DNA from: Romanomermis culicivorax
Taxonomy: Eukaryota > Nematoda > Enoplea > Mermithida > Mermithidae
Assembly: GCA_963922205.1 (NCBI GenBank)
Contig: CAWUHX010000039.1
Location: forward strand, 1,178,001-1,242,000
Length of the DNA stretch: 64,000 nucleotides
Reading direction: 5' to 3'
Made by a program: the position numbers and the translations under genes. Position 1 is the stretch's first letter. Every line of letters starts with the position of its first letter. This document shows positions 40,939 to 62,896 of this stretch, in pieces. The notes under the pieces are model-generated. The model ran no database searches, was not told the origin of the DNA, and worked only from the letters and a program-made list of their open reading frames with translations.

Positions 40939-41130
40939 TCAATTATTCTGAATATCAAGTATTAGATGAGGATTCCAAACAACAGACGCATATTCCACGA
41001 TTGGCCTAACATAGCAAGTAAAGGCCTTGATTTTTAAGTTTAAGGGCTTTTGAAAAAAGCTCTCTGTGTGAATCACAATCCATGGCGCTTTGGAAACTAG
41101 GTACCAGATCAGGATGCTGTATAATATCAA
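40939..41130 (-). pseudogene. short LINE-type RT remnant in repeat X
   Basis: The frame reads LNLKIKAFTCYVRPIVEYAS then VVWNPH, a pattern typical of the C-terminal RT region of jockey/CR1/RTE-like LINEs (Y.RPILEYAS.VW.P). The same fragment is at 61600-61388. Only about 60 residues, no other domain. Confidence 0.6.
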
Positions 41131-41157
41131 GAATGTTTTGCCCCACCATTAAGAGCT
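41107..41157. repeat. 51-bp direct duplication flanking the LTR element, left copy
   Basis: GATCAGGATGCTG...TAAGAGCT, identical to 50409-50459. The unoccupied paralogue at 61558-61608 has it once. Confidence 0.9.
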
Positions 41158-42044
41158 TGTAACGACCAGATTTCTGTGAGGTACTTTACTTGGACCAATC
41201 GGTCGATACGGCGGGGCAAATACGGGGGACGGGGCGAACGGTTACAACAAACAACGGGTAATTCGACGGTCGCTTGAACGTCGACAAATAAAACGCGCTT
41301 CGAATAAAAACGGATGGGGGCCTCGGTTTAAATGCTTTCGAATAGTCGGCCGCTTGCAAATGTATAAAGACGGGGGCGAGCGCGGAAAAACACAAGAATA
41401 AGAATCAGAATATAATAACCAAAATCACGCTTTGCTTCTTCTTTTATACGGCGATTTTGGCCACTCCCTGGACGCTGCGGGAGGTCGAGCTTCTGTCCAT
41501 TTTCTTCCGCCAATCGTCGTTTCCGGCTACGCTTTTCATGCTTTCTTAACTACGCCTCTCTAATGCTTTTCTGGTACTGTATGCTTTCTGTGCTTTGCTT
41601 GCTTTCTACGGTGGGCTTGGCCACACCTCTGTGCTTCTGTGCATGCTTCCTGTATCGGTTTCTCTGTATATACTCGTTTTGTGGGGCCGCCGCTACTGTT
41701 ACACTTGAGACTACTGTACGGCGGGGCTTCTACATATTTTACTGTGTGCAGGTGTTGTTTACGATTTTTACTGGGGATTACGGTAGCTGTGGAATGTGTA
41801 GTTTAGTGTGGGTTCTAGGGGAACAGCTGCCGTTTGTGCAAATTAATTAGGGCATCTTAATTGGGCTACCGGGGTGTGAACGGATCAAAATAAAGTACTT
41901 CACGTAATTTTGTAGGAATGTTTGGGTGTGAATCCCAGACATCCTTGAGACGATAAAATGTGAAAAATAAAATAATATCTAATAAATGTCTATTACATAC
42001 AGTATGCTACATATTTACAGTACTGCTTTAGCAGGTACGTTACA
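41158..42044 (-). repeat. 3' LTR (887 bp)
   Basis: Termini TGTAACG...CGTTACA form a perfect inverted end. On the element strand it begins directly after a purine tract at 42045. It carries 27 bp (42018-42044) that the other LTR lacks at its outer edge. Short plus-strand frames inside (such as 41563-41850) are repeated in the other LTR and are probably chance. Confidence 0.9.
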
Positions 42045-42057
42045 TTTCCCTCCTTCC
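42045..42057 (-). promoter_or_regulatory. polypurine tract
   Basis: Element strand GGAAGGAGGGAAA immediately before the TGTAACG start of the 3' LTR; primes plus-strand DNA synthesis in LTR elements. Its position fixes the true LTR edge. Confidence 0.8.
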
Positions 42058-42075
42058 GGAGTTGAACGTCCTCGT

Positions 42076-45000
42076 TCAAGGCTTTCGGGGTTGAGGAAGG
42101 GTGGGGGTAGATTCGATAGTTGCTTTCCGAGGGTAGAAAGGGGTTGTCTCATTTACATGCACCGTAAATGTAATATTCTTATGGGGGTGTTTGAGTGTAA
42201 CATTGGGGTACATGAAATTCGTAACTGTATAGGGCCCGTTTTGGCGAGGGAGGAATTTGGGAGTCAGCCCTTGTTTACACGAATGATTTTTATAAAGAAT
42301 AAGATCACCTGCCTTGTAATGTATGTTCTGAGCGTGCTTGTTATACTGACGGGTATAGCGGGCTTGGGCTTTTTGCAAACTTTTCTGCACGGTTGAGAGT
42401 GCTTCTGTGAAATGCGATTTTACACGAAGGGCGTAATCATCTAAATCAACCATGTAGGACGTGGGGAGAAAATTTAAAGCTGCATCTGACGGCAGATTAG
42501 CTTGCCTACCGTGGAGTAATTCAAATGGGGGATATGAAGTGCTATCATTTTTATGGATGTTGATCGAAAAAACGGCGTACGGGAGATAAGTATCCCAATC
42601 AGTGTGATTTGAATTGATGTACATGCGAATATGGGTGGCTAGGGTTTGGTTGCAACGCTCAACTTCCCCATTGGCAATGGGATGGTATGGGGTGGTATGA
42701 ATTTTCTGAGTATTGCATAAACTGGTGATCCGTGAGAAAAGATCGGATACGAAATCGGTGCCACGATCACAATGGATGATTTTTGGGGACCCATGACGAC
42801 AAACAATTTTGGTTACGAATAGCTTGGCAATAGTGGCTGCAGTGATGTCAGGGGTTGGGAATGCCTCTACATACTTTGTGAAATAATCGATGAAAACGAC
42901 AATGAATCGGTTGCCGTCTTCAGTGAGGGGTAATGGTCCCATGCAATCAACACCAACTCGATCAAATGGGCCAGTTGGCTGAATTGGGACCAAGTTTGCA
43001 TGCACTTTGTGTCTAAGAGCTTTCTGTGTCTGGCATGGGTGGCAGGTTTTGCAGTAACGTTTGATATCACGGCTCATTTGGGGCCAAAAATATTTCTGTC
43101 TGAGCAAGTGTAAAGTTTTCCGGGCTGCAAAATGACCTGTGAACTTGCTGTCATGATGTGAGGTGATGAGATGCTGGACTTGGGACTTGGGAATGTATAG
43201 TTTTGCCTGTTTGTGGACTATACGGAAGAGAATGTTTTGATGTACTGCGAATTTGATAAGGGTAAGGGGGTGTTTTTGGGCGATTTTTGCTAAAATACTT
43301 TTGACAGTTGGATCAGTGCGTTGGAGTTCAGCGAAATTTTTCTGTTGCTCTTCCTGTTCAGTTGCTTCAGCTTCCAAAACCGAATTGATAGTGGATATTT
43401 CAGGGCGGGTTTCTAATTGGTCAATATCAAAGGATGGCTTTGCTGTCTGTGAGGGGAATCGAGAAACTGCATCTGCGTTGCGGTTAGCAGTGCCTTTCTT
43501 AGGTCGAATGTCGAGTTGAATACCAGATAGGGCTAATCCCCAACGGGCAATGCGAGGGGACGGGTTTTCCTTTTGTAAGACTGCCTGAACTGCTGTGTGG
43601 TCAGTGTGTACAATAACATGTTGCTGGAAAAGATAAGGGCGGAAATACTTGACAAATTCGACTACTGCAAGGGTTTCTAACTCAGTGATCGGATAGTTGC
43701 GTTCTGCGGGTTTCAATGTGCGGCTCCCAAAAGCAATGGGGCGATCCTGACCTTTACTATCTAGCTGACTGAGAATGGCGCCGATTCCGAGTTTTGAGGC
43801 GTCGGTTTGCAGAATAAACGGTTTTGTGAAATCGGGATGCTGTAGTATTGGGGCATGAATGAGTAATTCTTTTAGCTTAGTGAATGCATTTTGCTGTTCA
43901 GGGCCCCAGGAAAATTCTGAGTTCTTTTTGAGTAGCGATGTGAGTGGGCTAGAAACTTGAGAGCAATTTGGGATGAATCTACGATAATATGAGGGTAGGC
44001 CAAGGAATGACTTAACTTCTTTTGAGCTTTTGGGCGTGGGTATGTCATAAATGGCCTGTACCTTATGGGGATCTGGTGAGATGCCTTGCTGAGAAATGAC
44101 GTGGCCTAAGTATTGGACTTGGGGCTGGCAGAATTTGCATTTTTGGATGTTTAGCTTAAGGCCTGCTTGTGAGAATCGGGCAAGAATAGTGTCTAAACGT
44201 TCTAGCATTTGGGCATGGGAGTCTGCGAATACCAAAACATCGTCGAGATACACAAGGCATGTGTTCCATTGCAGACCCGAGAGAATAACATCCATTAACC
44301 TTTGGAATGTGGCTGGGGCATTGGTGAGTCCAAAAGGAAGGTAATTGAATTGATACTGGCCGGCTGAGCAATTAAAGGCCGTTTTTTCTCTGTCTGCTGG
44401 TGCTATGGGAATGGAATAGTATGCATTGGATTGGTCAAGGGAGGTGAAATATTTCATTCCACGGAGGGTGTCTAGAATTTCGTCTATACGGGGTAAGGGG
44501 TAGGTATCTTTTTTTGTGACTTTGTTGAGGCCTCTAAAATCAATGCATAAACGATGGCCTCCATCTTTTTTGGGAACTAAAACTGTGTTGGTACACCATG
44601 GGGAATTGCTTTGGCTTATGACACCTGCTTTTGCGAGTTGCTCAACTTCTGCTTGTATGATTTGCTTTTCTTTTGGGGAAGTCCGATAAAGTTGTCTACG
44701 TACGGGTTGGGAGCCATTGGTGTCAATTGTATGTGAAACAAGGGTGGTTCTACCTACATCCATTTTGGATTTAGCATATAATGTAGGGTACTTCGATAGG
44801 GCGCGTAGGAGTTGCGTTTTTTCGGTTTCTGTCAGGTCACTGGAGGTTAAATTAACGTTTTCTTTTAACCATGTGAATGTATCAAAACGGTTGGGCTGGT
44901 TTTGCGTTGAAGGGGTTAGATTAGCGGGAGCATTTTGTTTTGGGATGTAACAAGAGACTGTGCCAATGCATGTTCCAGGGTAAAGAATTTGAGCTGTTTC

Positions 45001-47544
45001 TTGCGTGTTTAGGACGGATACACGTATGCGACTGTTTTGGTTTTCTGAGATACAAGCTGCGAAATGGACTTTGGGATTCTGTTTGGGTTTTGGGGTGAAT
45101 TCAAGCTGTTTGACCTGTAAGTACGATTTGGGCAAGGGGACAGTAAATTCGGTTACGGTACGAGGTGGTAATTCTAATTTCTCATCTAAATAAGTTCCAC
45201 CACGAGTTGAAAGAGGGCTATATTCTAGGCCATCACAAGGTAGTATAACATTGCCAAATTTGACCTGTGATTTTTGATTGTTGATAGTGTATTCTGAAAA
45301 TCGACTGAGAAAGTTTTTGCCTAGAAGGATATCTGCTGTGCAATCTTTTTGGACATGGACCATGATTGTTTCCTGGATTGTTTGGGCTGTCACTGTGACA
45401 AAAGTGGTTCCTACAAAGTGAATCGGGAGATTATTTGCTGCTTTTGCTTGGACTAGCGGGGGTTTCATGTCTAACTGTAAAAGTTGCGCGACTCGGGAAT
45501 CAATGAGTGAGTAAACTGCACCAGTGTCAATCATGCCTTTTGTCATTAATTTGCCGTTAAGTGTAATCGGGATGTGAGGGGTATGTTTTTCAGGTACGTT
45601 TTGGGGTGGCTTATTTGATGCAGATTGCTGAATTTGATTGATGAGTTCGATTGCAGGAGTTCGGGGGGTATCGATATCGACAAGGACGTATTTCTGTTGC
45701 GTTTGTGCCCCACGACGATTAGCTAATTCTAAGAGAGCATGGCCGAATGATGGGGGAATGGTCTCATGTAAATGTCTGTTGTTTGATGGTATTTCGTATG
45801 CGTGTTCGTTTGTGGCTTGATGCTTTGGAGAGGGGAAATATTTTCGAAGAACGAGAAACAAATAAAAGACGCCTGCAATAACTACAGTAATAACGGCTAG
45901 ATTTATAATGATTTGCAGGGGTCCTTTGAGTAAATTGTTTAATCCGTCTGTGAGACTTTGGGTGGTACCGGTTATTACATGTTCTATGCCTTGACCGGTG
46001 CCAGAGAGTGTATTTCCGAGTGCTTGGCCAGTGCCTGAGATCATGTTGTAAACTGTATCGGAATTGAGAGACATTTGGGCGGTGTAATTGACAAGTTTTT
46101 TGACAATGTTTTCGAGTGTGTGAGTTTTGTAAATGTATTGTTTCAAAAAGAGTAAGTTGGTTGAGATAGTTGCAAGTTGATCATGAAAAATGGCAGGTGT
46201 ATTGAAATGGAAGAGGGAGAAATTTTGGTTCCAGACAATTTCTAAGGGTAAGTTTGTAACATGGGGGGATCCTGTTTCACTGACCCATGTGTTATTCTGT
46301 TTGTAAAGGGCTACATGCATGTGATGGCAGTCAACGGTTTGCGAAAAAGGGGTCAAATCGTTGCCTCCTGGATTTGAAAACATGAGTTCAGTTCCTACGA
46401 GAATGGGCAAAAGTTTGTAGCATGTTTGGTTGATTTTATGGTTGTAAAAGACTTTGGATGCGTTTACCTGCTTGCAGGGCCAGACTGTGAGGGCTTCTCC
46501 TGTAAATTCTGCTATTATGTCGGTTCGCTGTAGGAATGCACGCGCTCCAAGGGTTGCATCAAGACGCAAGATTTGCCATACGAGATCAAGGTGACGCTGT
46601 GCCTGTCTACATAATTCACTCCATACGTTTTTGAAATTTTGAATTTCGAATTCCTGTATTTTGTCTGCTAGATAGTTTAGTTTTGCATTGATGGGTTCAA
46701 AATCATCAAAATCGTATAGTGTAGTATGAGTTTCGTTGGTTTTTGGGGTTAAAAATGCGTTACGATGTGGGGTGCTTTTGTCTAATTGTACGATAATGCC
46801 TTGTTCGGTTAGAATGCTGTCTTGTATTTCTGGGCAATTGGGGTTCGAAAAAACTGTATTTTTGACCGAGAATGCACCTTGTAGTTCTTCTATTATCATG
46901 TGTGTTTGCGTGAGTTTGATGGGATGTGTATTTTTGTATTCGAAAGGGCATAAGTTTTCAAATGCTGTTTCATTCCAGATAATAGATCCGTCGGCTGTGA
47001 CACAATGACCTGATGTCGGTTTGCATGACCCTAGGTCGCCTAATGTACCTGTCATAGATTTTCCATTCCAAGATGCTATTTGTCCTATTTCTATGATGAC
47101 GTTAGTGACTGAGGTACAATGGTCTGTACAACACCATGTGTATTCTACGCTTAGGGAGTTATTTGTTGACCAAAATCCTGGTTGGGTTTCGTATAATTTT
47201 TGACCGTTGTGTTCTTTGTCTATAACGATTGCCTTACAAACATGTGGGGTTAGATTTTGCATTTCGGTTTGGTCGAAGACAATACCTTTTGATCCAAAAA
47301 ATCCTGTATTAGTACAAATTTTCCGTTTGCGAAAACTGCATTTGTATGCGTCTGTAATGTGGGGCTTAGTGGAGGGGATATAGATTTTTCCGAATGTCTG
47401 TACAGGTTTGTCTACTGTGGAAGGGGGCATACATGATACAAGTTTTGGTATGCTGACTGAGTGACCGCTCAATGAAGTTCCACACATCTGAAATTGGGCA
47501 CTACACGATGTGGGGATTATTATACAAAGAAAAATACAAAACAC
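42076..47544 (-). CDS. Env-like glycoprotein fused to protease-RT-RNase H-integrase polyprotein
   Basis: This is a single open frame of 1822 codons. Residues 1-16 are a hydrophobic signal-peptide-like stretch. Residues 17-540 are a Cys-rich ectodomain with several N-glycosylation sequons, a helical segment near 285-335 and GTGQ-type repeats at 503-530. A membrane segment lies at about 544-566, followed by a basic anchor and tail. Protease has IDTGA (673-676), RT has YLDD (1099-1102), RNase H has QTDAS (about 1247), and integrase has a HH-CC zinc site (about 1463-1504) and Asp1533, Asp1593, Glu1629 (35 residues between the last two). The glycoprotein has no confident relative; a chuvirus-like fold is a guess. 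The frame opens at GTG with no upstream ATG; it is +1 to gag and overlaps its end. It may be made by frameshifting or splicing. Confidence 0.93.
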   Translation of the reverse strand: MFCIFLCIIIPTSCSAQFQMCGTSLSGHSVSIPKLVSCMPPSTVDKPVQTFGKIYIPSTKPHITDAYKCSFRKRKICTNTGFFGSKGIVFDQTEMQNLTPHVCKAIVIDKEHNGQKLYETQPGFWSTNNSLSVEYTWCCTDHCTSVTNVIIEIGQIASWNGKSMTGTLGDLGSCKPTSGHCVTADGSIIWNETAFENLCPFEYKNTHPIKLTQTHMIIEELQGAFSVKNTVFSNPNCPEIQDSILTEQGIIVQLDKSTPHRNAFLTPKTNETHTTLYDFDDFEPINAKLNYLADKIQEFEIQNFKNVWSELCRQAQRHLDLVWQILRLDATLGARAFLQRTDIIAEFTGEALTVWPCKQVNASKVFYNHKINQTCYKLLPILVGTELMFSNPGGNDLTPFSQTVDCHHMHVALYKQNNTWVSETGSPHVTNLPLEIVWNQNFSLFHFNTPAIFHDQLATISTNLLFLKQYIYKTHTLENIVKKLVNYTAQMSLNSDTVYNMISGTGQALGNTLSGTGQGIEHVITGTTQSLTDGLNNLLKGPLQIIINLAVITVVIAGVFYLFLVLRKYFPSPKHQATNEHAYEIPSNNRHLHETIPPSFGHALLELANRRGAQTQQKYVLVDIDTPRTPAIELINQIQQSASNKPPQNVPEKHTPHIPITLNGKLMTKGMIDTGAVYSLIDSRVAQLLQLDMKPPLVQAKAANNLPIHFVGTTFVTVTAQTIQETIMVHVQKDCTADILLGKNFLSRFSEYTINNQKSQVKFGNVILPCDGLEYSPLSTRGGTYLDEKLELPPRTVTEFTVPLPKSYLQVKQLEFTPKPKQNPKVHFAACISENQNSRIRVSVLNTQETAQILYPGTCIGTVSCYIPKQNAPANLTPSTQNQPNRFDTFTWLKENVNLTSSDLTETEKTQLLRALSKYPTLYAKSKMDVGRTTLVSHTIDTNGSQPVRRQLYRTSPKEKQIIQAEVEQLAKAGVISQSNSPWCTNTVLVPKKDGGHRLCIDFRGLNKVTKKDTYPLPRIDEILDTLRGMKYFTSLDQSNAYYSIPIAPADREKTAFNCSAGQYQFNYLPFGLTNAPATFQRLMDVILSGLQWNTCLVYLDDVLVFADSHAQMLERLDTILARFSQAGLKLNIQKCKFCQPQVQYLGHVISQQGISPDPHKVQAIYDIPTPKSSKEVKSFLGLPSYYRRFIPNCSQVSSPLTSLLKKNSEFSWGPEQQNAFTKLKELLIHAPILQHPDFTKPFILQTDASKLGIGAILSQLDSKGQDRPIAFGSRTLKPAERNYPITELETLAVVEFVKYFRPYLFQQHVIVHTDHTAVQAVLQKENPSPRIARWGLALSGIQLDIRPKKGTANRNADAVSRFPSQTAKPSFDIDQLETRPEISTINSVLEAEATEQEEQQKNFAELQRTDPTVKSILAKIAQKHPLTLIKFAVHQNILFRIVHKQAKLYIPKSQVQHLITSHHDSKFTGHFAARKTLHLLRQKYFWPQMSRDIKRYCKTCHPCQTQKALRHKVHANLVPIQPTGPFDRVGVDCMGPLPLTEDGNRFIVVFIDYFTKYVEAFPTPDITAATIAKLFVTKIVCRHGSPKIIHCDRGTDFVSDLFSRITSLCNTQKIHTTPYHPIANGEVERCNQTLATHIRMYINSNHTDWDTYLPYAVFSINIHKNDSTSYPPFELLHGRQANLPSDAALNFLPTSYMVDLDDYALRVKSHFTEALSTVQKSLQKAQARYTRQYNKHAQNIHYKAGDLILYKNHSCKQGLTPKFLPRQNGPYTVTNFMYPNVTLKHPHKNITFTVHVNETTPFYPRKATIESTPTLPQPRKP

Positions 47545-47560
47545 CGGCCAATAGAATGTT

Positions 47561-49306
47561 TTAGTGGAGGCGGCGGGGTACTGTATATTTTCGTTGTGCT
47601 CGATTTGGCGTTGGGGCTTTTGGTGTTGTCGTTTTGCGATTTTGGGCTGGGGGGGGTGGCCGGTTTGAAATCTGAACGGTCTGTAAAACTTTAGAAGTTG
47701 AGTTATGGGATGGGGTTTGGACTTGCTTACTTGTGGGGGTCGGTAGCAATGTTTGGCGGGGGCGAAATTGGTAGGGTTCAGGGGTCAGGCCATGGAGAAG
47801 GGATAACAAGTTGCGGCCTGTTTTCGACGGGGTTTCGGGGGCGGTGGGCGGCGTAGTGTCTTGTTTTCGGGGGATCTTGTAGCCTACGGGGATGGTGGGC
47901 GGCGATTTTTCGATCTTTGCGGCTTCAGGCGTGGGGGGTGGTGACATGGCGCACCAATCGGGTACGTCCAGATCAAGGACGTATTCGTCACTACGGCGGT
48001 GGGTGTTGGGCATGATAGTTCCTAAAGTAGTCTGAGGGCCGTTAGTTATGGCGGGTAATTTTGAGTAAAATGCAGGGTCGTCAATGTCCATGAGGGGTTG
48101 GGGTTGCCTATACTCAATGCAATTTTGAATATTACGACTTTGCTGATTTGGGCAATACCTGCTTGTATGACCTCTCTGCTTGCATATAAAACATTGAAAA
48201 TTGGAGTGGGGTTTTGAAGGGCAGTTATCTGATCTATGTCCTGTTTGGGAGCAGTGGATGCATGGGCTTTTACAATCACGTGTACTGTGATTATTACGGA
48301 AACAGATTGTACATGATTTTCGGGTGCCTACTGATTTACAATTACGAGCTACGTGTCCGATTTGTCCACACTGGAAGCATGTGGGTTGCCTAGGGGTGGT
48401 ATTGTTCCTGTAAGCATTATTCCTGCTGAAAGTATTATTACTGAAATTGTTGTAGCTACTTTGTTGTGGGGGTTGAGGTTTTTGTTCGATCTGCAACTGT
48501 AAATCTTTTACTTGTTGTTCTAACTGATGCAAAAGATCCTGTTGGTCTGTATTTTTCGTTAGGGAAAAGATGGGTTCGGGTTTTGAGGGTATGAAAGGAA
48601 GGACGTTAGACTTTAACTCATTTCTAAGAATTTGCTGTTCAATGTAAGCTGCTTCGTCTGACATTTCTTTTAGAGTTGTGAATCTTCTATACTTAATTGC
48701 TTCCCTGATTTCGTTTTGCATGCCTTCTACAAAGAGGGGTTTTATGATCATTTCTCGTGCGTCTGTGTTAAAGTTAGGGTAGGCGAGGGTTGCGAGATGT
48801 TCTAGATCAAATAAGAATTCCGTTACTGTTTCTGATCGCTTTTGTTTTCTTTCGCGTAAGAATTGTTGATGTAGCTCATTATCTCTATTGTTTGGGAAAA
48901 ATGTCTGTAATGCGACTTTATACTGCTCGTATGTGTGGGGAGGGTTTTCGGAATTTGCTAAGCTTTTGAACTTTGCTAACGCGGCTCCTCCTAAATGAAT
49001 TTCTAAACATGCCAACTTTAACTGTACGTCTGTATCTTTCATGCCTTGGAGTGCCATGAATTGTTCTAATCTTTTGTTCCATTCACCAAAATGTTGGGTC
49101 ACGCCGCCTGTGAATACTGTAGGTTTCGCGTAGAAATTGTTTGCCATGTTATTACGAATGTTTGCTGTTCTTAGATCGTCTATTAGGGTAGGGTTTACTG
49201 TATTCTGATTCAATTGTGTGCGTAGGGTACGAAAATGTTCGGAAAACAAATCGTTTATCTGTTCTCTAACGATTTCTCCTAAATGATCTTGCGTTTGGTG
49301 GGTCAT
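47561..49306 (-). CDS. gag: Gag with four zinc knuckles
   Basis: 581 codons from ATG at 49306 to TAA at 47561. Residues about 60-225 resemble the retrotransposon capsid domain (FGEWNKRLEQFMALQG, then LQTFFPNNRDNELHQQF). A Gln/Asn-rich stretch precedes four CCHC knuckles at about 310-323, 332-345, 349-362 and 372-385 (CFQCGQIGHVARNC and variants), more than the usual one or two. The C-terminus is Pro/Thr-rich. The next ORF lies in the +1 frame and remains open upstream across at least 100 nt of the gag end, with no ATG of its own. Gag packages element RNA into virus-like particles. Confidence 0.93.
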   Translation of the reverse strand: MTHQTQDHLGEIVREQINDLFSEHFRTLRTQLNQNTVNPTLIDDLRTANIRNNMANNFYAKPTVFTGGVTQHFGEWNKRLEQFMALQGMKDTDVQLKLACLEIHLGGAALAKFKSLANSENPPHTYEQYKVALQTFFPNNRDNELHQQFLRERKQKRSETVTEFLFDLEHLATLAYPNFNTDAREMIIKPLFVEGMQNEIREAIKYRRFTTLKEMSDEAAYIEQQILRNELKSNVLPFIPSKPEPIFSLTKNTDQQDLLHQLEQQVKDLQLQIEQKPQPPQQSSYNNFSNNTFSRNNAYRNNTTPRQPTCFQCGQIGHVARNCKSVGTRKSCTICFRNNHSTRDCKSPCIHCSQTGHRSDNCPSKPHSNFQCFICKQRGHTSRYCPNQQSRNIQNCIEYRQPQPLMDIDDPAFYSKLPAITNGPQTTLGTIMPNTHRRSDEYVLDLDVPDWCAMSPPPTPEAAKIEKSPPTIPVGYKIPRKQDTTPPTAPETPSKTGRNLLSLLHGLTPEPYQFRPRQTLLPTPTSKQVQTPSHNSTSKVLQTVQISNRPPPPAQNRKTTTPKAPTPNRAQRKYTVPRRLH

Positions 49307-49535
49307 TCTTGGTTTACGTTGGGATTTCTGCTTAAATGCTTCAATTTTTGCTTCACGCTGTATTCGTTTAAATGTATCGCTTAATGCTTCGTTGGAGGGG
49401 GTTTCCAGTTTGCTTAATACGAATACCGTCTTACTGTAGGAAATGATTACTACTGTATTACTAATGCTTCTAAACGCCCGGATAAGAGTACACCTAACTG
49501 GGGGCAGGGAGTTCCACTGGTTAACGTAACGGTAC
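49307..49535 (-). other. untranslated leader between PBS and gag
   Basis: About 230 nt of the element RNA leader. No separate ORF. A splice donor for an env message, if any, would be expected here or in early gag; I could not pick one out. Confidence 0.6.
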
Positions 49536-49543
49536 GGTCACCA
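49536..49543 (-). promoter_or_regulatory. candidate tRNA primer-binding site
   Basis: Element strand TGGTGACCG begins 5 nt after the 5' LTR. TGG at the start complements the CCA end of a tRNA. The tRNA species is not established; the first eight bases are compatible with several tRNAs ending GGTCACCA. Confidence 0.6.
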
Positions 49544-49548
49544 AAATA

Positions 49549-50408
49549 TGTAACGACCAGATTTCTGTGAGGTACTTTACTTGGACCAATCGGTCGATAC
49601 GGCGGGGCAAATACGGGGGACGGGGCGAACGGTTACAACAAACAACGGGTAATTCGACGGTCGCTTGAACGTCGACAAATAAAACGCGCTTCGAATAAAA
49701 ACGGATGGGGGCCTCGGTTTAAATGCTTTCGAATAGTCGGCCGCTTGCAAATGTATAAAGACGGGGGCGAGCGCGGAAAAACACAAGAATAAGAATCAGA
49801 ATATAATAACCAAAATCACGCTTTGCTTCTTCTTTTATACGGCGATTTTGGCCACTCCCTGGACGCTGCGGGAGGTCGAGCTTCTGTCCATTTTCTTCCG
49901 CCAATCGTCGTTTCCGGCTACGCTTTTCATGCTTTCTTAACTACGCCTCTCTAATGCTTTTCTGGTACTGTATGCTTTCTGTGCTTTGCTTGCTTTCTAC
50001 GGTGGGCTTGGCCACACCTCTGTGCTTCTGTGCATGCTTCCTGTATCGGTTTCTCTGTATATACTCGTTTTGTGGGGCCGCCGCTACTGTTACACTTGAG
50101 ACTACTGTACGGCGGGGCTTCTACATATTTTACTGTGTGCAGGTGTTGTTTACGATTTTTACTGGGGATTACGGTAGCTGTGGAATGTGTAGTTTAGTGT
50201 GGGTTCTAGGGGAACAGCTGCCGTTTGTGCAAATTAATTAGGGCATCTTAATTGGGCTACCGGGGTGTGAACGGATCAAAATAAAGTACTTCACGTAATT
50301 TTGTAGGAATGTTTGGGTGTGAATCCCAGACATCCTTGAGACGATAAAATGTGAAAAATAAAATAATATCTAATAAATGTCTATTACATACAGTATGCTA
50401 CATATTTA
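49549..50408 (-). repeat. 5' LTR, missing 27 bp at its outer edge
   Basis: Same as 41158-42017 (offset 8391) at all positions compared. It should continue with the CAGTACTG...CGTTACA end present in the 3' LTR, but instead passes straight into the duplicated host segment at 50409. Confidence 0.9.
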
Positions 50409-52747
50409 GATCAGGATGCTGTATAATATCAAGAATGTTTTGCCCCACCATTAAGAGCTCCTAATTTGAATAAAATTGTGATTAACAGTATTTCCATTTA
50501 AATATTCTGTTTTATTCCATAAAATACCGGGTATATTAAACTAACGAATAATCAGGGTTATTTGTCTGCTAGCTGTAGAGCAATAGATCATTTCAGTACC
50601 CTCAAAAAAGAACTTATATCCCATTGGAAACGCTCATTTCGGAATTCGCTCAATTGAGAATTTGCCCACTTGGAAATACTTGAGAATTCGCTCAATTGGG
50701 AATCACTCACATGAAAAATTCGCTCAGTTGGGAATTCGCTCTTCAGCTCAATTAGGAATCACGCACATGAAAATACCCCGACCCCTTGGCCATATACACA
50801 CTATATCAAAAGTTGAGAACTCTTGAAAAACCCACAATGGAAAAGATGGAAGTCTTTTTTCAATTTCCAAGTTCCACAGCGTTCTGAAATTAATTAAACC
50901 TATTCATTTCTCCTGTAGAATTTTTGTATATACACTGCACGTTTTGCCAGCTCTGAGTTTTTACGCAGACTCCGTAGTCATTACTGTATTGCGTATCCGA
51001 AATTGGAAAGTGTTATCATTGCACCATTCGGAGCCACCGTTTTTTTTCCTCGAAGATTTTTTCCACATGAGAACCGGACCCAAAATTTTTTTCCTCATTT
51101 TCCAAAAATTTTCCTTATTTTTGAAAACGCTTATAATGTGGCTACGGATGCTTTTTTATGCATTTTATGAGCCTACCCAAGTATTTTGTTGTATTTGTAG
51201 TCAGAAACCTGCAAAAATGAGGAAAAAAATTGAGAAAATTAGGGTTATGTTAGTCAAAAAAAGCCAATGAAGAATATATTGGTGTTCTATAGGAGCAGAT
51301 AAAGCAAGTTAACGATAGAGTTGTCATGAATTTATCCGCTATCAATATTACTGTGATTCCGATTAGAATCATCTAATTTTATTTAGTTCTTGGTCTGGCG
51401 CGGAGCGCCGAAAAAATTTTTGGTTTTTCACTTTCTAAAACGCTGAAAAATCAATCTCTCCAGCAGACAATTCGTGAACAAAAGTTTTAAAATCGCAGTC
51501 TAAAATGATGTCTTCAATTTCCACTTTCAATAAACGCAAAAGTTCAGATTGCAAGCTTTTAAAAAATTCCAATCATCGAGAGAAAAAATGGAGAGAATTG
51601 ATGAATAATCTCTCCTTTCGGCGACATAATTGATTGTAAACGATTAGAAAATGAAACGAGCTAGCTTGATTGATAGAAACTGTTGAGCATTAATAAGTAA
51701 GTCGAAGTAAATATGCTAACGGCCGCGCCTGATAGAATATAGTTATCATTATACCCATGACCGGCGCGAAGCGCCGGAAAATTTTGAGATTTCGACCTTT
51801 TAATGTCCACCAAAACGCATCTTTTCGGTTTAAAGTTCCCTAAAATTTTTTCCACAGTGAGAACCATACCCAAAATTTTTTTCCATTTCGAAATTTTTTT
51901 CCTCAAAAGACCCCATTTGAGGAAAAAAACGGTGGCCAAAACTAACCTTCTAGCGCCGCCATCAACCGGAATTCGGAAATCATACTTTTCTTCGTTTTTT
52001 TCTGATCTTAAAGGAAAAACTGTTTTTTTCCACAGTTGCAGTTGTGGAACAAAAATTTGAAATTTTCATAGAATTGAGCATATTTCTTCATATGTTTAGG
52101 ACATAACTGTAAGACCTCCGACCAGTTGGCGGGGGCGGGGCTGGTGGAAAAAAGTCGAAATTTTTCCCAAAAAAGGCCAAAAAACATACACTTTTTTGCA
52201 AATTTTTTCATTTTTTACAAACTTGGGGGGTTAGATGATGTTGGGTACATGGTTGGCCAAGTTGGGAGGCCCCCAACCCCCCAAGTACAGGTATGGTTTA
52301 GGAGAAATTCAGTCATCGAGAGACCAAAGATTGTATTCAGGGTTTTTTTCACACCCAAATTTCGGGCTGTGCAACCAAATTTTTTCTCCCAAGTTGCACA
52401 GTGCAACTTGAGGCCTGACTGCTCTCTTAATTAGGTTATAGGGTTTTCTGTCCGGAGATGCATTGTTATGCATTCTAAAATGGAAAAAAAGTAAAAATTT
52501 TCTGGCACCGCGCGCCGGGTTTCAGTTCATTTATAATTTTCTATATTATTCTAGTGCGTGATTAAAAAAGGTCATTCTAGTTACTGTTTATAGGTTCTAA
52601 TTATCATCATATTAAGGACAAATGTTTGATCCTGTTTTATTTTTTGACGAATTTGATGAAAACTAACATTTTTCTTGACAATTTTCCAAAAAATTTTTCG
52701 CCATCTTCATGAAAATTTTGAGTTTTGACTTTCATGTGATTCAAATA
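50409..52747. repeat. host repeat X, right part
   Basis: The first 51 bp repeat 41107-41157. Then 50460-51010 matches 61609-62160, 51942-52020 matches 62297-62385, and 52244-52747 matches 62392-62896. About 900 bp in between (51031-51941) has no counterpart in the other copy and contains two further GGCGCGRAGCGCCG hairpins. Ends abruptly at the start of retrotransposon copy H. No gene. Confidence 0.8.
50636..50765. repeat. minisatellite of AATTCGCTCAATTGGGAAT-like units
   Basis: About five imperfect 18-25-bp units with GAATTCGCTCA cores; same array at 61786-61915. Confidence 0.75.
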
Positions 52748-53875
52748 TCCCCCATTGATCGAGGTGGTCTAGGCTTCACGATGTCATCCATAGAACTGAA
52801 TCTGCACTTGGTCATGAATATTTTCTACTTCCTGACTAGCCCTAGTTCCAAAATACAACATTATATGAAAAATCTATTAGCTGAAACTGTAGAACGTTGG
52901 ATTAAAACAGTGCCCTCTGAAAAGGAATTATATGATTTTCTGAATGGTGTTACAACTGGAAAATTCCATATTTTCGCCTCATCGAATGGGGGTGATTCTA
53001 GAAGTCTGCTGAAGCGAGCTCGAGCAGCCATGGGGGCTCTGCAAAAACATATCAATTTGCAGTTCTGTTTGCTATCTACAGGAAAAATGGCCTTAAAATT
53101 ATTGCTGAAGGGCAAAACTTACATTTTTGATCAAAACTTTCGTTAAACGGCATTTCAGCTAGTCAGAAAAGCTATAGACGAGGCACAATATCATGAGCTA
53201 TGCCAAAATTTTCCCAACCAAGGAAAGGTCCTCCAATGTGTAGCTGTGGACAAGGCCAACAATAGCTTCACTAAAGATGGCAAATATATTTCATTCTCTA
53301 GTTTCAACTTTATTCACCGTGCCCGCTTAAATTTACTGCTGGTGAACTGTAATCCATCTAATCCTGGCAGAAATCCTCGTGAGCAGCAGTGTTGTAGGTG
53401 CAGATATAAGCAGGAAACCCTATCACATATATTATGCCTCTGCAAAATGCACTTAAGCTCTGAAATCTTGCAACATCACAATGCATTTCTGGATCATGTG
53501 GTTAAAACTGTCCAAAACACAAATCAGGGCTGAAAAATCTACACTAATCAAGTGTGCAATGTTGCTGGACGGAATGTTCGACCCAATCTGGTTGTCATTA
53601 ATGAAAAAGATAAAATTGTGGACATTATTGATGTAACCTGCCCATTCGAAAATAGCATCAATTCCCTCATCCAGGATCGGGTTAAAAAACAATTGGTCTA
53701 TGAGCCTGAAATGAAAGCCTACCAGGCATTGGGCTACCTTGTTTTTGCTGATGCCATAGTTGTGGGTTTTTTTGGAACATGGGATAAATTCAACAACAGA
53801 GTCCTCCAACACATTGGGACCTCGCCTAAATACTTGAATCTCATGAAAAAAATTTGTTGTTCAGGTAACTATTGA
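52748..53875 (+). pseudogene. RT C-terminus and endonuclease of copy H, inactive
   Basis: Frame 52748-53146 (RT thumb) ends in TAA at a C-to-T-type change after DQNFR. Frames 53246-53533 (knuckle, CCRCRYKQETLSHILCLC with the His/Cys pattern altered) and 53552-53875 (endonuclease) follow. The endonuclease PD motif reads RPN instead of RPD, removing an acidic catalytic residue. A stop replaces the Cys codon after NTNQG. Confidence 0.85.
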
Positions 53876-54181
53876 ATTTTCCAAAGATATATATTGGAAA
53901 CACATTCTAGCCCAGAAGCCTCATGCCATGTAGCTCTAGTTCCCGACCATTTTTTATGATTGTAAACTTCAGTCCCGTTTTACTTCAATGGTCGATCTAT
54001 TTTACCAAAATTCATTTTCTTTCCATCCATTGACATTTTTTAAATTCGCTTTTAACTTTTGAAATTTTGGCTTTACTTTTGAATTTTATCCCTATCAAAT
54101 TTTAATGCAAATCTTCCTTTACTTTTTTAACATTAACCACTGACGGCCATACTAACGGTGAAATTGTATGCTTTGTTTTAG

Positions 54182-55035
54182 CTGTATCATCCGTGCTGAC
54201 CATAAAACCGGCACTACTCCGTCCCTTCGCAGATTTCCGTATGGGCATCACGACTAAGGATTTGCCCATATTTGTAGAGAAAGTTATCTGCCTAGTCGGT
54301 GGCAACAACGATACATCTGAAAAATGTTCGACCGACAAAAATAATAGTATTTCGAACAATGAGTTTACTAAAAATGGGAAAGTTGCCCCAAGTTCATTGC
54401 TAGTTTGTGACGCTGCCCCTTTGGGGAATGCACTAAATCATATCCATCCACCGGCCACTTTTCCCTCAATTGACAGTTTTCGACCCTGTTGGCTGATCAG
54501 AGACAGCCAAATCAAGGAAGTCCAATACAACAGCCGTGGCTGTGTTGGAACTTGCCTTCGTGGCAAAGGATTTGTTGAGCTTGCTGGGGTTGTAAAGTTA
54601 GTTCATACAGTGCCTAGCACCGTACAGTTCATAGCCCTAGTATTTGGAACCGTCGATGTCCGCAACAACTGGGCTATTTCGAATGTTCTCCTTAGCATTA
54701 GAAGCATAGTTGCTTATTTCAGTAATGTTCTTGGATACCAAAAACAGATTTTTATTTGCACGGTTCCACTTTTCGAAGCGCAGGACCTAAATTGTGCTAT
54801 TCTATGTGAAATCCGCAAGAATCAATCTTTAAAAAATGTTTTTCCGATTGATCTACTTAAACATTTATTGTTGCATAATTAATCTTCTTTTTTTGCAGCA
54901 GATAAGTACCATTTGAACCATTCCGGTACTATTGAAATGTGCAAGTTATTGGCGAGTCGGTCGTAATTTTTTTTTCTTTCTTTTTTCCGTAACTTGCGTG
55001 AGTTGGGACGTTTAGCCCATGTTTTTCCATACTAA
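54182..55035 (+). pseudogene. SGNH/GDSL-like ORF of copy H, inactive
   Basis: Opens right after the TTTGTTTTAG acceptor-like site (54181). It reads CWLIRDSQ where copy F reads CWLIGDSQ, has an extra stretch of about 14 residues near codon 37, and hits TAA after LLLHN before the block V region (ADKYHLNHSGT, split by the stop). Confidence 0.85.
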
Positions 55036-55187
55036 AGCCGGCTTTTTTATGCACTTGTTTATCTTTTGATTGTTTGTTTTTCATTCTGCGTTTATCACAT
55101 GTTTTTCATTCTCATAAACCTTATGGCCGTCACTTTACATTTGTTTAGTATTCAGGTTATTATATATGATTCGTTTCAATAAAGTGA

Positions 55188-55346
55188 ATCTGTTCTTATC
55201 AGCTTAATCTCTGATACGTGATCTACCCGATCACAATGAGATTATTCGGAGCATAGCGGGTGCGTAAGGCTTGCTCTACCTCTGCTGGGGGTGGTCCTGG
55301 TATTGCAGTATCTCCGGGTTCAGCCCAGTTCCCTAGGGGGGACACT
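55188..55346 (+). pseudogene. U2 snRNA 3' fragment downstream of copy H
   Basis: ATCTGTTCTTATCAGCTTAA through CTCCGGGTTC to the terminal stem-loop. The Sm-site region is damaged (ATTATTCGGAGC, with part of the GATTTTTGGACCTTGG segment missing). Confidence 0.88.
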
Positions 55347-57565: not shown

Positions 57566-59106
57566 ATGACTGAAAAGCTCACTCGTATACCACTGTATTT
57601 TGTGGCAAGGATTATTTGTCTACACAAATTAGGCGTTTCGGTGCCTAGTACAAGACTTATTCTGGCGAAGGAGCACTGTTGTATTTCTGGGGCTATTCGC
57701 CTATTCATAAAAAGGTTTCAAGCCGTAGGTCACTTATATGACTTGAAGAGAAGTTGAAGAAAATCGAAGGTTCCAAACGTCACTAAAAAACTAATTGATC
57801 GACTTATGTATTCAAATAATGAATTTATTGCAAAGGACTTAGTCACAATTTTGAAACGGATGCATAATATTACACTTGATTGTTCAACTGTTCGTCGGAT
57901 TAGGAGAGAACTAGGTACAGAAGTCCACAGAATAATAATCTAATTTACACGCATAGAGTAGAAAATAGAAAAAATCTAAGACATTACATGCTTTTCAATC
58001 TCAAAATTTACAAGCATTCTCAGAAAGCAGACTCTAGTCTGTAATTGCACTAGAGTATACACACATGTTGCTCTGTAATATGTCATTTTTTCTGATATTT
58101 CTTCTTTGTTTTTCAACATTTGAATATTAAAATAATTTGTAAACAATTTTTTTCTCATGATTTTTCCTATTCAATCTAAAAAATGTGTAGGTTGGGTACG
58201 TTCAACTGTTAAATATTTGTCAAATGGTTCGAGACGTGAACAAAGAAAAAAGGATACTATTCGGCAAACTGGTATTGGAAGAGAAAATCGATTTAGACAC
58301 CATCGTCTTCACTGATGAATGTACAGTTCAACTCGAAGCACATAGGAAAAAAGCATATAGAAAACAAGGGGAGGACAAGCTCATTATTTTGAGAAGCGTA
58401 GCCAAGCACCCTGTGAAAGTAAGTTATTTTTTTTAGTTAGGTGATTAAATTATCTGAGGATGAGAGATGGACCAGTGAACAAAAATACTTTTGGGTCAAA
58501 GAAGTTTACAGTAAGACACGTGAAAGATTTTTGAGTTATCGCATATTTTTACCATTTTCTATTCAACTATTCACTTCTTATAGCCACAATAGGCAAAATG
58601 CACAATATTCTTTTGTCAAGGTTCATGTTTGGGCTGGAATCAGCTCATTTGGCGCCACAAAAATTTGTATTTTTGATGGACGGGACCAGATGGATAGTGC
58701 AATTTTTTGCAATATTTTGACGAATTTCTATTTACCTTTTGTCAAAAAATTTCCGGCAGCCATTTTGCAAATGGACAATGCACCAATGCACACGAGCCCT
58801 TTTTCTTCGAGTTTTATGGAAGCAAACCACGTTCAGCGCTTATGTTTTTGGCCGCCAGAATCGCCTGATCTCAACCCTATTGAAAAAGTTTGGCATCAAC
58901 TCAAAGAACATTTGCGAGGGCACATAAAACCACGTAATTTAAGTGAACTTATCGCAGGCATTATGAATTTTTGGTGCACTCAAATGACAAAACAACAATG
59001 TATGACATACATCAAAGGCATACCACGGATCGCTAGAGCTGTATTAGCATACCACGGATCGATAGTTCATTTTCAGGTCAAAGACGCGTCTGGCGTAGAC
59101 GGTTAG
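57566..59106 (+). pseudogene. Tc1/mariner DD35E transposase with two introns and one in-frame stop
   Basis: ATG at 57566. Exons 57566-57922, 58191-58418 and 58621-59106 join in frame at phase-0 GT-AG introns of 268 and 202 bp, giving about 356 codons, a normal size. The N-terminus has helix-turn-helix-like sequence (VPNVTKKLIDRL, STVRRIRREL). The catalytic triad is Asp in VFTDEC, Asp in QMDNAPMHT and Glu in SPDLNPIEKVW, with 35 residues between the second and third. A TGA at 57755 interrupts exon 1 and probably came from CGA. The normal stop lies in the right TIR. The second intron removes a frame-shifting insertion between HPVK and VHVWAG, which supports splicing. Confidence 0.88.
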
Positions 59107-60884: not shown

Positions 60885-61132
60885 TATAGTCTGTTTTTTT
60901 GAAATGATTTTGAATAGAGAAAGTGGAAAGCTAGAAATATTTAAGATTTTCACGATTTTGTGATAAACAATACGTTATAGACGAATGGAAATTAGTGGGC
61001 GTACTGGCCTAACCTTTAACAATTTTTCGAGTCAAAAATTTGACAGTAAGAACTTTACGTAAGCGATTTTGACGACGATATTGATTTGTGTCACTTTTAT
61101 ATTTGGAAGCATTTTATAAAAAACTGACTATA
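60885..61132. repeat. MITE with TATAGTC ends, in repeat Y
   Basis: TATAGTCTGTTTTTTTGAAA to AAAAACTGACTATA; copy of 40437-40683. Confidence 0.78.
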
Positions 61133-61785
61133 GCGCTCTGAATGGAAAATGAATTTTTTCTGCAATTTAGGAATATATAATGAATTCTGTCGACTAGATC
61201 GAGTAATGATGGAGGTGGATTGCCAAAAGACTCATCATAGCTTAAGATAGATTCATTGATTACTTAGTATGTGATGACGGCATCAAAGTTCAATCGACGA
61301 ACTTAAAGTCTCTGTAATTTTAGCTGCTATAACCGGTCATGATAAGACGAAGTTAGTATTGTCTTTGTGAATTTGCATTGAATATTTTCAATTATTCTGA
61401 ATATCACGTATTAGATGAGGATTCCAAACAACAGACGCATATTCCACGATTGGCCTAACATAGCAAGTAAAGGCCTTGATTTTTAAGTTTAAGGGCTTTT
61501 GAAAAAAAAGCTCTCTGTGTGAATCACAATCCATGGCGCTTTGGAAACTAGGTACCAGATCAGGATGCTGTATAATATCAAGAATGTTTTGCCCCACCAT
61601 TAAGAGCTCCTAATTTGAATAAAATTGTGATTAACAGTATTTCCATTTAAATATTCTGTTTTATTCCATAAAATACCGGGTATATTAAACTAACGAATAA
61701 TCAGGGTTATTTGTCTGCTAGCTGTAGAGCAAGATCATTTCAGTACCCTCAAAAAAGAACTTATATCCCATTGGAAACGCTCACT

Positions 61786-61915
61786 TCGGAATTCGCTCAA
61801 TTGAGAACTCGCCCACTTGGAAATACTTGAGAATTCGCTCAATTGGGAATCGCTCACATGAAAAATTCGCTCAGTTGGGAATTCGCTCTTCAGCTCAATT
61901 AGGAATCATGCACAT
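61786..61915. repeat. minisatellite in repeat Y
   Basis: Same GAATTCGCTCA units as 50636-50765. Confidence 0.7.
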
Positions 61916-62896
61916 GAAAATACCCCGACCCCTTGGCCATATACACACAATATCAAAAGTTGAGAACTCTTGAGTGTCCCACAATGGAAGAGATAGAAGT
62001 CTTTTTTCAATTTCCAAGTTCCACAGCGTTCTGAAATTAATTAAACCTATTCATTTCTCCTGTAGAATTTTTGTGTATAAACTGCACGTTTTGCCAGCTT
62101 TGAGTTTTTACGCAGACTCCGTAGTCATTACTGTGATGCGTATCTGCAATGAGAAAGTTTTATCATTGCATGCACCATTCGGCGTATTCCATACAAATTG
62201 CGATGATGCAAGAATACGCAAGCTTGCATCACTATTCATATTCATCATTATCGTCATCGTTATGATAGGCATATTTACAGTTTGGATATTTTTAGCGTCA
62301 AAACTAACCTTCTAGCGCCGCCATCGACCGGAATTCGGAAATCATACTTTTCTTCGTTTTTTCTGATCTTAAAGGAAAACATACCTGTACTGTTAGGTAC
62401 ATGGTTGGCCAAGTTGGGGGCCCCCAAGCCCCCCCCCTCAAGTATAGGTATGGTTTAGGAGAAATTCGGTCATCGAGAGACCAAAGATTTTTTTCGCACC
62501 CAAATTTCGGGCTGTGCAACCAAATTTTTTCTCCCAAGTTGCACAGTGCAACTTGAGGCCTGACTGCGATCTCAATTAGGTTATAGGGTGTTCTGTCCAG
62601 AGATGCATTGTTATGCGTTCTAAAATGGAAAAAAGTGAAAAATTTCCGGCACCGCGCGCCAGGTTTCAGTTCATTTATAATTTTCTATATTATTCTAGTG
62701 CGTGATTAAGAAAATTCATTCTAGTTACTGTTTATAGGTTCTAATTATCATCATATTAAGGATAAATGTTTGATCCTGTTTTGTTTTTTGACGAATTTGA
62801 TGAAAACTAACGTTTTTCTCGACAATTTTCCCAAAATTTTTTCGCGATCTTCATGAAAATTTTGAGTTTTGACTTTCATGTGATTCAAATATTTTG

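What the first reader, a model, noticed from the sequence alone, without database searches (positions are those of the whole stretch)
42076..49306. LTR retrotransposon with the order gag-env-pol: glycoprotein fused upstream of protease
In retroviruses and env-bearing Ty3/gypsy or BEL elements the envelope gene normally lies 3' of pol. Here a signal peptide, a Cys-rich glycosylated ectodomain and a membrane anchor precede protease, RT, RNase H and integrase in one 1822-codon frame. Translation of the whole frame would place Pol on the cytoplasmic side of a membrane-anchored protein, which poses an unusual processing problem. Both frames are intact and the LTRs look identical, so this is unlikely to be a chance rearrangement. 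I know of no described lineage with this layout.
Basis: partly seen in the sequence, partly recalled or inferred. Interest (0 to 1): 0.93.

Follow-up and report, generated by a model that had tools for sequence, protein, structure and literature searches.

The report
Retroelement with envelope before polymerase
This is a young, retrovirus-like mobile element that carries its cell-entry protein in the middle of one long protein, between the shell and the copying enzymes, instead of at the end as is usual, and relatives in the same genome share this layout.

Summary
The window (minus strand, 41158-50408) holds a Ty3/Metaviridae-type LTR element ordered gag - class III (chuvirus-type) env - PR - RT - RH - IN. 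Of 37 env loci examined (window, 30 cut out by an env profile, 6 more), 36 have env directly 5' of PR; one (L010) shows no PR. None shows env 3' of pol within the DNA fetched. Three copies with identical LTR pairs, from two lineages, carry gag-env-pol as ONE uninterrupted frame of 2409 or 2472 codons. Of the 73 copies nearest to the window's PR-RT, 52 lie in frames of at least 2470 codons. The window's two-frame split is a frame change in this copy near the gag-env border, so 'both frames intact' is wrong. Five lineages (env 38-56% identical to the window's) share the layout; env and PR-RT trees agree. Env is under purifying selection (dN/dS 0.05-0.17). Hydrophobic segments flank the ectodomain and none was found in gag or pol, which predicts cytosolic Gag and Pol and luminal Env, a flavivirus-like plan. 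Expression and processing are inferred. Class III env in gypsy elements is already in print; the order was not found in print, but the key paper (Chary and Hayashi 2025) could not be read.

The parts
41158..50408 (-). whole inserted element (LTR - gag - env - pol - LTR), 9251 bp
   Evidence: LTR pair; flanks align to one continuous empty-site paralogue
49549..50408 (-). 5' LTR, lacking its first 27 bases
   Evidence: 860/860 identical to 41158-42017; sister LTRs start TGTAACG
41158..42044 (-). 3' LTR, TGTAACG...CGTTACA
42045..42057 (-). polypurine tract GGAAGGAGGGAAA next to the 3' LTR
   Evidence: sequence; role inferred
49531..49543 (-). possible primer-binding site (TGG... 5 bases after the 5' LTR)
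   Evidence: position only; no tRNA match tested
47561..49306 (-). gag ORF, 581 aa: Retrotrans_gag and CCHC knuckles; residues 552-581 are read in a different frame from intact sister copies
42076..47784 (-). env-pol open frame, 1902 codons stop to stop (1822 from GTG 47544), overlapping the end of gag
47497..47544 (-). internal signal-peptide-like hydrophobic segment (sisters L039 and L040 have M where this copy has V)
45913..47496 (-). env ectodomain (limits approximate)
   Evidence: conserved cysteines in alignments A1 and A2
46201..46740 (-). PF24664 Monjiviricetes_fusion core (class III-type fusogen)
   Evidence: E 9.1e-19; 14 of 14 alignment members; weak gB structure hits
45847..45912 (-). 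transmembrane anchor (limits approximate)
45595..45846 (-). env cytoplasmic tail / linker to protease
45301..45570 (-). aspartic protease (DTGA)
   Evidence: PF13975 8.4e-09; sequence
44095..44577 (-). reverse transcriptase
   Evidence: PF00078 5.1e-39
43525..43908 (-). RNase H
   Evidence: PF17919 and PF17917
42679..43194 (-). integrase: H2C2 zinc binding and rve core
   Evidence: PF17921 1.2e-21, PF00665 6.2e-09
41107..41157 (.). target duplication, copy 1 (51 bp)
50409..50459 (.). target duplication, copy 2 (51 bp)
61050..62047 (.). paralogous empty site without the element
   Evidence: 98.7% and 97.2% identical to the two flanks

Best explanation
A Ty3/Metaviridae-type LTR retroelement lineage, perhaps of a nematode, carries a chuvirus-type class III fusion glycoprotein between Gag and the protease of a single Gag-Pol frame. 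The native product is one Gag-Env-PR-RT-RH-IN polyprotein of about 2400-2470 residues. Proposed working: Gag is made in the cytosol. The hydrophobic segment after Gag acts as an internal signal sequence, the ectodomain enters the ER lumen, and the second hydrophobic segment stops transfer, so PR-RT-RH-IN is translated back in the cytosol. Signal peptidase frees the Env N-terminus. Pol reaches particles as an Env-tail fusion beside membrane-tethered Gag, and the protease then separates the parts. Shown: order, single frame, two-segment layout, several lineages, agreeing trees, purifying selection, young intact copies. Inferred: translation of the whole frame, membrane topology, cleavage, budding and infectivity.
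For: Order gag-env-PRRT-RHIN in 8 of 8 ten-kilobase loci and env next to PR in 29 of 30 short loci. Single frame with identical LTR pairs in L036, L039 and L040; 52 of 73 scored copies in frames >=2470 codons, one of these with a stop noted inside the match. Two hydrophobic segments, flanking env, in one copy each of lineages A-D; basic residues exceed acidic ones after the anchor in 4 of 4. Env dN/dS 0.05-0.17 in the 21 distinct pairs of seven lineage-A loci. Env and PR-RT trees have the same branching. Four-base target duplications at L035, L037 and L040, read by eye.
Against: No transcript, protein or particle data were available. A 1:1:1 ratio of Gag, Env and Pol would be unusual (recalled), so a regulated product may exist. 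Structure prediction could not be run. In lineage A a methionine codon at the start of the signal segment could also start a separate Env-Pol product. Charge before the signal segment is mixed. 21 of 73 copies, the window included, have shorter frames.
Confidence: 0.66

Rival explanations
1. The layout is the same but expression is by splicing: env is an intron-like insert removed to make Gag-Pol, or Env(-Pol) is made from a subgenomic mRNA spliced from a leader donor to an acceptor before env.
For: Donor-like sites in the leaders of A-D, acceptor-like tracts before env in A, B and C, and near PR in B and D. Spliced env messages are usual in retroviruses and gypsy (recalled).
Against: The sites do not lie at matching positions between lineages, and their number looks like chance by my rough estimate (no shuffle control was run). 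No acceptor-like site near PR in A or C. Four copies picked because their frames (1834-1998 codons) were short enough to be env-less all still hold env; other short-frame copies were not looked at.
Confidence: 0.25
2. The window's two-frame form is native and Env-Pol is reached by programmed frameshifting from gag.
For: The env-pol frame is open 80 codons into gag in the window.
Against: Intact sisters L039 and L040, 97-98% identical in gag and env, have one continuous frame; the commonest frame among 73 copies is 2486 codons (25 copies).
Confidence: 0.04
3. Env is a passenger: only its open frame is needed to reach pol, and the glycoprotein has no function.
For: A stop in env would silence pol, so the frame would be kept open anyway.
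Against: dN/dS 0.05-0.17, conserved cysteines and two conserved membrane segments across lineages show selection on the protein, not only on the absence of stops.
Confidence: 0.04
4. Misassembly or chance rearrangement.
For: None found.
Against: 36 of 37 env loci on many contigs, several lineages, empty site in the window.
Confidence: 0.01

Closest known systems
Metaviridae (Ty3/gypsy) elements with env, including errantiviruses
   Same: gag, PR-RT-RH-IN, CCHC knuckles, TG...CA LTRs in intact sisters, 4-bp target duplications at three sisters. PMC13172572 (passages) says that some gypsy elements have type III fusion glycoproteins, so that env type is not new for gypsy
   Different: env lies between gag and protease in one frame. 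Env-like genes are described as downstream of pol in the passages read of PMC5408684 and PMC7642597 (Roo, Tas, Cer-7); for errantiviruses this is recalled
Atlas virus of hookworm (Belpaoviridae), PMC9094657, passages read
   Same: nematode element with gag, pol and env as one polyprotein (2828 residues), identical LTRs, captured RNA-virus fusogen
   Different: order Gag-Pol-Env, phlebovirus-type class II env, BEL/Pao pol
Anakin (mosquito BEL/Pao with chuvirus glycoprotein), PMC7642597, passages read
   Same: chuvirus-type glycoprotein captured by an LTR element
   Different: Pao pol; the passages that I read do not say where the glycoprotein lies in Anakin
Flavivirus-type polyprotein (recalled, analogy only)
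   Same: capsid, internal signal, glycoprotein, then replication enzymes in one frame
   Different: unrelated RNA virus; no homology claimed

Membership tests
Metaviridae / Ty3-gypsy LTR retroelement | PR-RT-RNase H-IN domains with Ty3-type RT | tested here: met
   Pfam; database hits with names include transposons 17.6 and 297, gypsy elements by recall
Metaviridae / Ty3-gypsy LTR retroelement | place among named Ty3 clades in a reference RT tree | not tested
   the tree holds database hits, not named reference clades
Metaviridae / Ty3-gypsy LTR retroelement | LTRs with TG...CA ends and 4-6 bp target duplication | tested here: met
   sister copies L037 and L040, L035 for the duplication; the window insertion itself is atypical: 51 bp, 5' LTR short by 27
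Metaviridae / Ty3-gypsy LTR retroelement | retrotransposon gag with zinc knuckle | tested here: met
   PF03732 and PF00098 over their cut-offs; Ty3_capsid PF19259 below its own; L036 too
Usual env-bearing layout (retroviruses, errantiviruses) | env 3' of pol | tested here: not met
Monjiviricetes/Jingchuvirales fusion glycoprotein | match to the family profile above its cut-off | tested here: met
   67.3 bits against 27; 14 of 14 A1 members match at E <= 0.01; 68 of 68 scored genome matches over the cut-off
Monjiviricetes/Jingchuvirales fusion glycoprotein | class III fold | tested here: inconclusive
   weak profile hits to gB structures; no structure model
Belpaoviridae (Atlas, Anakin) | BEL/Pao-type pol | not tested
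   no BEL/Pao reference was aligned; named database hits are of gypsy type

The most novel reading that the evidence does not exclude
A retrovirus-like lineage that uses a flavivirus-like polyprotein strategy: one ORF, internal signal and anchor, Env-tail-borne Pol co-packaged with membrane-tethered Gag, and infectious spread selected often enough to keep env at dN/dS near 0.1.
Probability: 0.45. Interest if true: 0.93.

Novelty: new variant of a known kind. Interest (0 to 1): 0.85.

Why it matters
Env 3' of pol is close to a rule for retroviruses and env-bearing retroelements (recalled; passages of PMC5408684 and PMC7642597 say as much). A group of several lineages of young elements under selection, with env inside the Gag-Pol frame, shows that the rule can be broken. 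It makes testable how Pol could be packaged through Env and how an internal glycoprotein is tolerated in a capsid-enzyme polyprotein.

Tried and rejected
Led nowhere: viral-contig scans with P0002, A1, P0005 and A2 and genome contigs with A1 gave no relative. The protein database with A2 (env plus PR) scored none; by the tool's length rule only proteins of about 421-1340 aa were candidates, so longer fusions were not tested. With env of P0002 it gave two env fragments, one from Romanomermis culicivorax. The SL1 search for a nematode host found nothing, but its control rang nowhere either. The splice-site scan was inconclusive. Text searches for the layout and its kin: (no paper). Among the papers listed, no title or abstract start shown names an element with env between gag and pol; I followed up only some, by passages, and lists were capped.

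Rejected: misassembly; frameshifting as the native mode; env-less spliced copies as the cause of short frames (4 of 4 picked still hold env); Troyka (two of five parts read: no env, CG...CG ends).
Full report
What is there. On the minus strand, 41158-50408, lies an LTR element with two ORFs: 581 aa (47561-49306) and 1822 aa (42076-47544). Searched in pieces against Pfam, the first is a retrotransposon gag with CCHC knuckles. The second holds Monjiviricetes_fusion PF24664 (9.1e-19), then aspartic protease, RT, RNase H, H2C2 and rve. The LTRs are identical over 860 bases. The 3' LTR starts at 42044 next to a polypurine tract, and the 5' LTR lacks those first 27 bases.

The insertion is real. The two flanks align to one continuous paralogue at 61050-62047 without the element, 98.7% and 97.2% identical; the insertion duplicated 51 bp. 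That is long for an integrase (recalled: 4-6 bp). Sisters L035, L037 and L040 show four-base duplications, read by eye; the other fetched copies could not be read for this because one end was cut off or not legible.

It recurs. With PF24664, 68 of 2320 first-look candidates in the window's genome (359 Mb, 595 contigs) were scored and all 68 passed the cut-off. Of the 30 loci cut out (two of them, L030 and L031, gave nearly the same matches), 29 have PR-RT directly 3' of env; L010 shows env but no PR. Gag was detected 5' of env in 15 of 30, and none showed another order; these loci reach only 1.5 kb to each side. Eight ten-kilobase loci (six re-fetched from the 30; L039 and L040 new) all read gag-env-PRRT-RHIN. 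Four more, picked for short frames, read gag-env-PR. With the window this makes 36 of 37 distinct loci. The other 36 scored env hits, and the unscored candidates, were not read.

One frame is native. L036, L039 and L040 have LTR pairs 100% identical over 856, 894 and 912 bp (in L036 and L039 the 3' LTR runs to the end of the fetched DNA) and a single uninterrupted frame from the gag ATG of 2472, 2409 and 2409 codons. A search with the window's PR-RT scored 73 of 9123 candidates, all at 99-100% identity, so it samples the youngest copies of lineage A. 52 of 73 lie in frames of at least 2470 codons (one of these with a stop noted inside the match), 25 in frames of exactly 2486; the other 21, the window included, are shorter. 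The window copy changes frame near the gag-env border relative to its intact sisters and has V where L039 and L040 have M at the signal segment. Not all sisters are intact: L035, L037, L038, L041 and L042 have stops or frame changes.

Lineages. Env identity to the window: L040 98%, other A rows 94-96%; B (L036, L008, L007) 55%; L005, here called E, 56%; C (L035, L021, L028) 41-43%; D (L012) 38%; P0004 47%; P0005 36%. Trees of env and of PR-RT, rooted at the midpoint, have the same branching, D,(C,(A,(E,B))). Several forks are below the starred level: E with B in env 93/92, A with E and B in PR-RT 94/93, and the deepest env fork 64/39, where long branches meet. The R. culicivorax fragment P0004 falls with B at 100/100. 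In a quick RT tree of 124 rows (the 120 best of 5452 database hits and six own rows; P0011 and P0017 dropped), A, B and C join P0012 and P0013 at 100, and D joins P0016 at 99. The own rows need three changes, so they are not shown to be one clade. The gene order around those database proteins is unknown.

Selection. Env dN/dS is 0.05-0.17 among seven lineage-A loci (eight rows, of which L038 and L024 are the same locus; 21 distinct pairs). L039 against L040: gag 0.12, env ectodomain 0.066, PR-RT 0.028. This is selection on the protein. Between lineages dS is saturated.

Topology. With a 19-residue Kyte-Doolittle window at 1.6, one copy each of lineages A-D has exactly two hydrophobic segments, one before and one after the ectodomain, and none in gag or in the pol pieces scanned (for D the end of pol was not scanned). 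Basic against acidic residues after the anchor: 3:2, 5:1, 5:2, 7:0; before the signal segment the balance is mixed: 3:1, 5:5, 2:3, 2:0. The model with Gag and Pol cytosolic and Env luminal is consistent, not proven.

Env identity. PF24664 matches 14 of 14 alignment members; BDV_G and herpes gB families match 8 of 14 more weakly. The profile finds gB-type structures at 7.5e-4, 2.2e-3 (molecule named ORF8) and 0.13, and also an unrelated ribosomal protein at 0.025. The single sequence found no structure.

Control. Another high-copy Ty3-like family of the same genome (L043) is one frame of 2278 codons from its first ATG but has no such hydrophobic segment; its 902-residue N-terminal piece has no Pfam match. 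So a single frame is not special here; the internal env is.

Literature. PMC7642597 (passages) describes BEL/Pao elements with chuvirus glycoprotein. PMC10084718 (passages and Results) reports no clear capture of such glycoproteins by Gypsy or Copia elements. [quoted passage not shown] Atlas virus (PMC9094657, passages) is nearest in plan: one Gag-Pol-Env polyprotein. PMC5408684 (passages) treats env as ORF3 after pol. Chary and Hayashi 2025 could not be read; PMC13172572 and PMC12859917, which cite it, were read in passages.

Host. Inferred only: a mermithid nematode or near relative, from P0004. Env-bearing elements can move between hosts, so this is weak.

Noticed in passing
window 1-36150: Several families of direct repeats recur at about 5.66 kb spacing; minus-strand ORFs there match RVT_1 and C2H2 fingers, which suggests a head-to-tail array of zinc-finger non-LTR retrotransposons.
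   Followed up: partly
window 52748-55250: An inverted copy of the 25-31 kb repeat sequences, 82-95% complementary.
   Followed up: no
window 58441-59106: DDE_3 transposase fragment, E 5.8e-16.
   Followed up: no
window 41107-41157 and 50409-50459: 51-bp target duplication with a 5' LTR short by 27 bases: an insertion unlike integrase products, perhaps by end joining.
   Followed up: yes
G000 C180 (404, 8769, 17134) and C25 (197813, 206184): Env hits at about 8.37 kb spacing, close to internal region plus one LTR (8391 in the window), suggest tandem elements that share LTRs.
   Followed up: no
L043: High-copy Ty3-like family with one 2278-codon frame and about 900 residues before the protease without a Pfam match.
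   Followed up: partly
P0005: An env relative filed as a Gammaproteobacteria MAG protein on a 1383-base contig, most likely a misbinned animal sequence.
   Followed up: no
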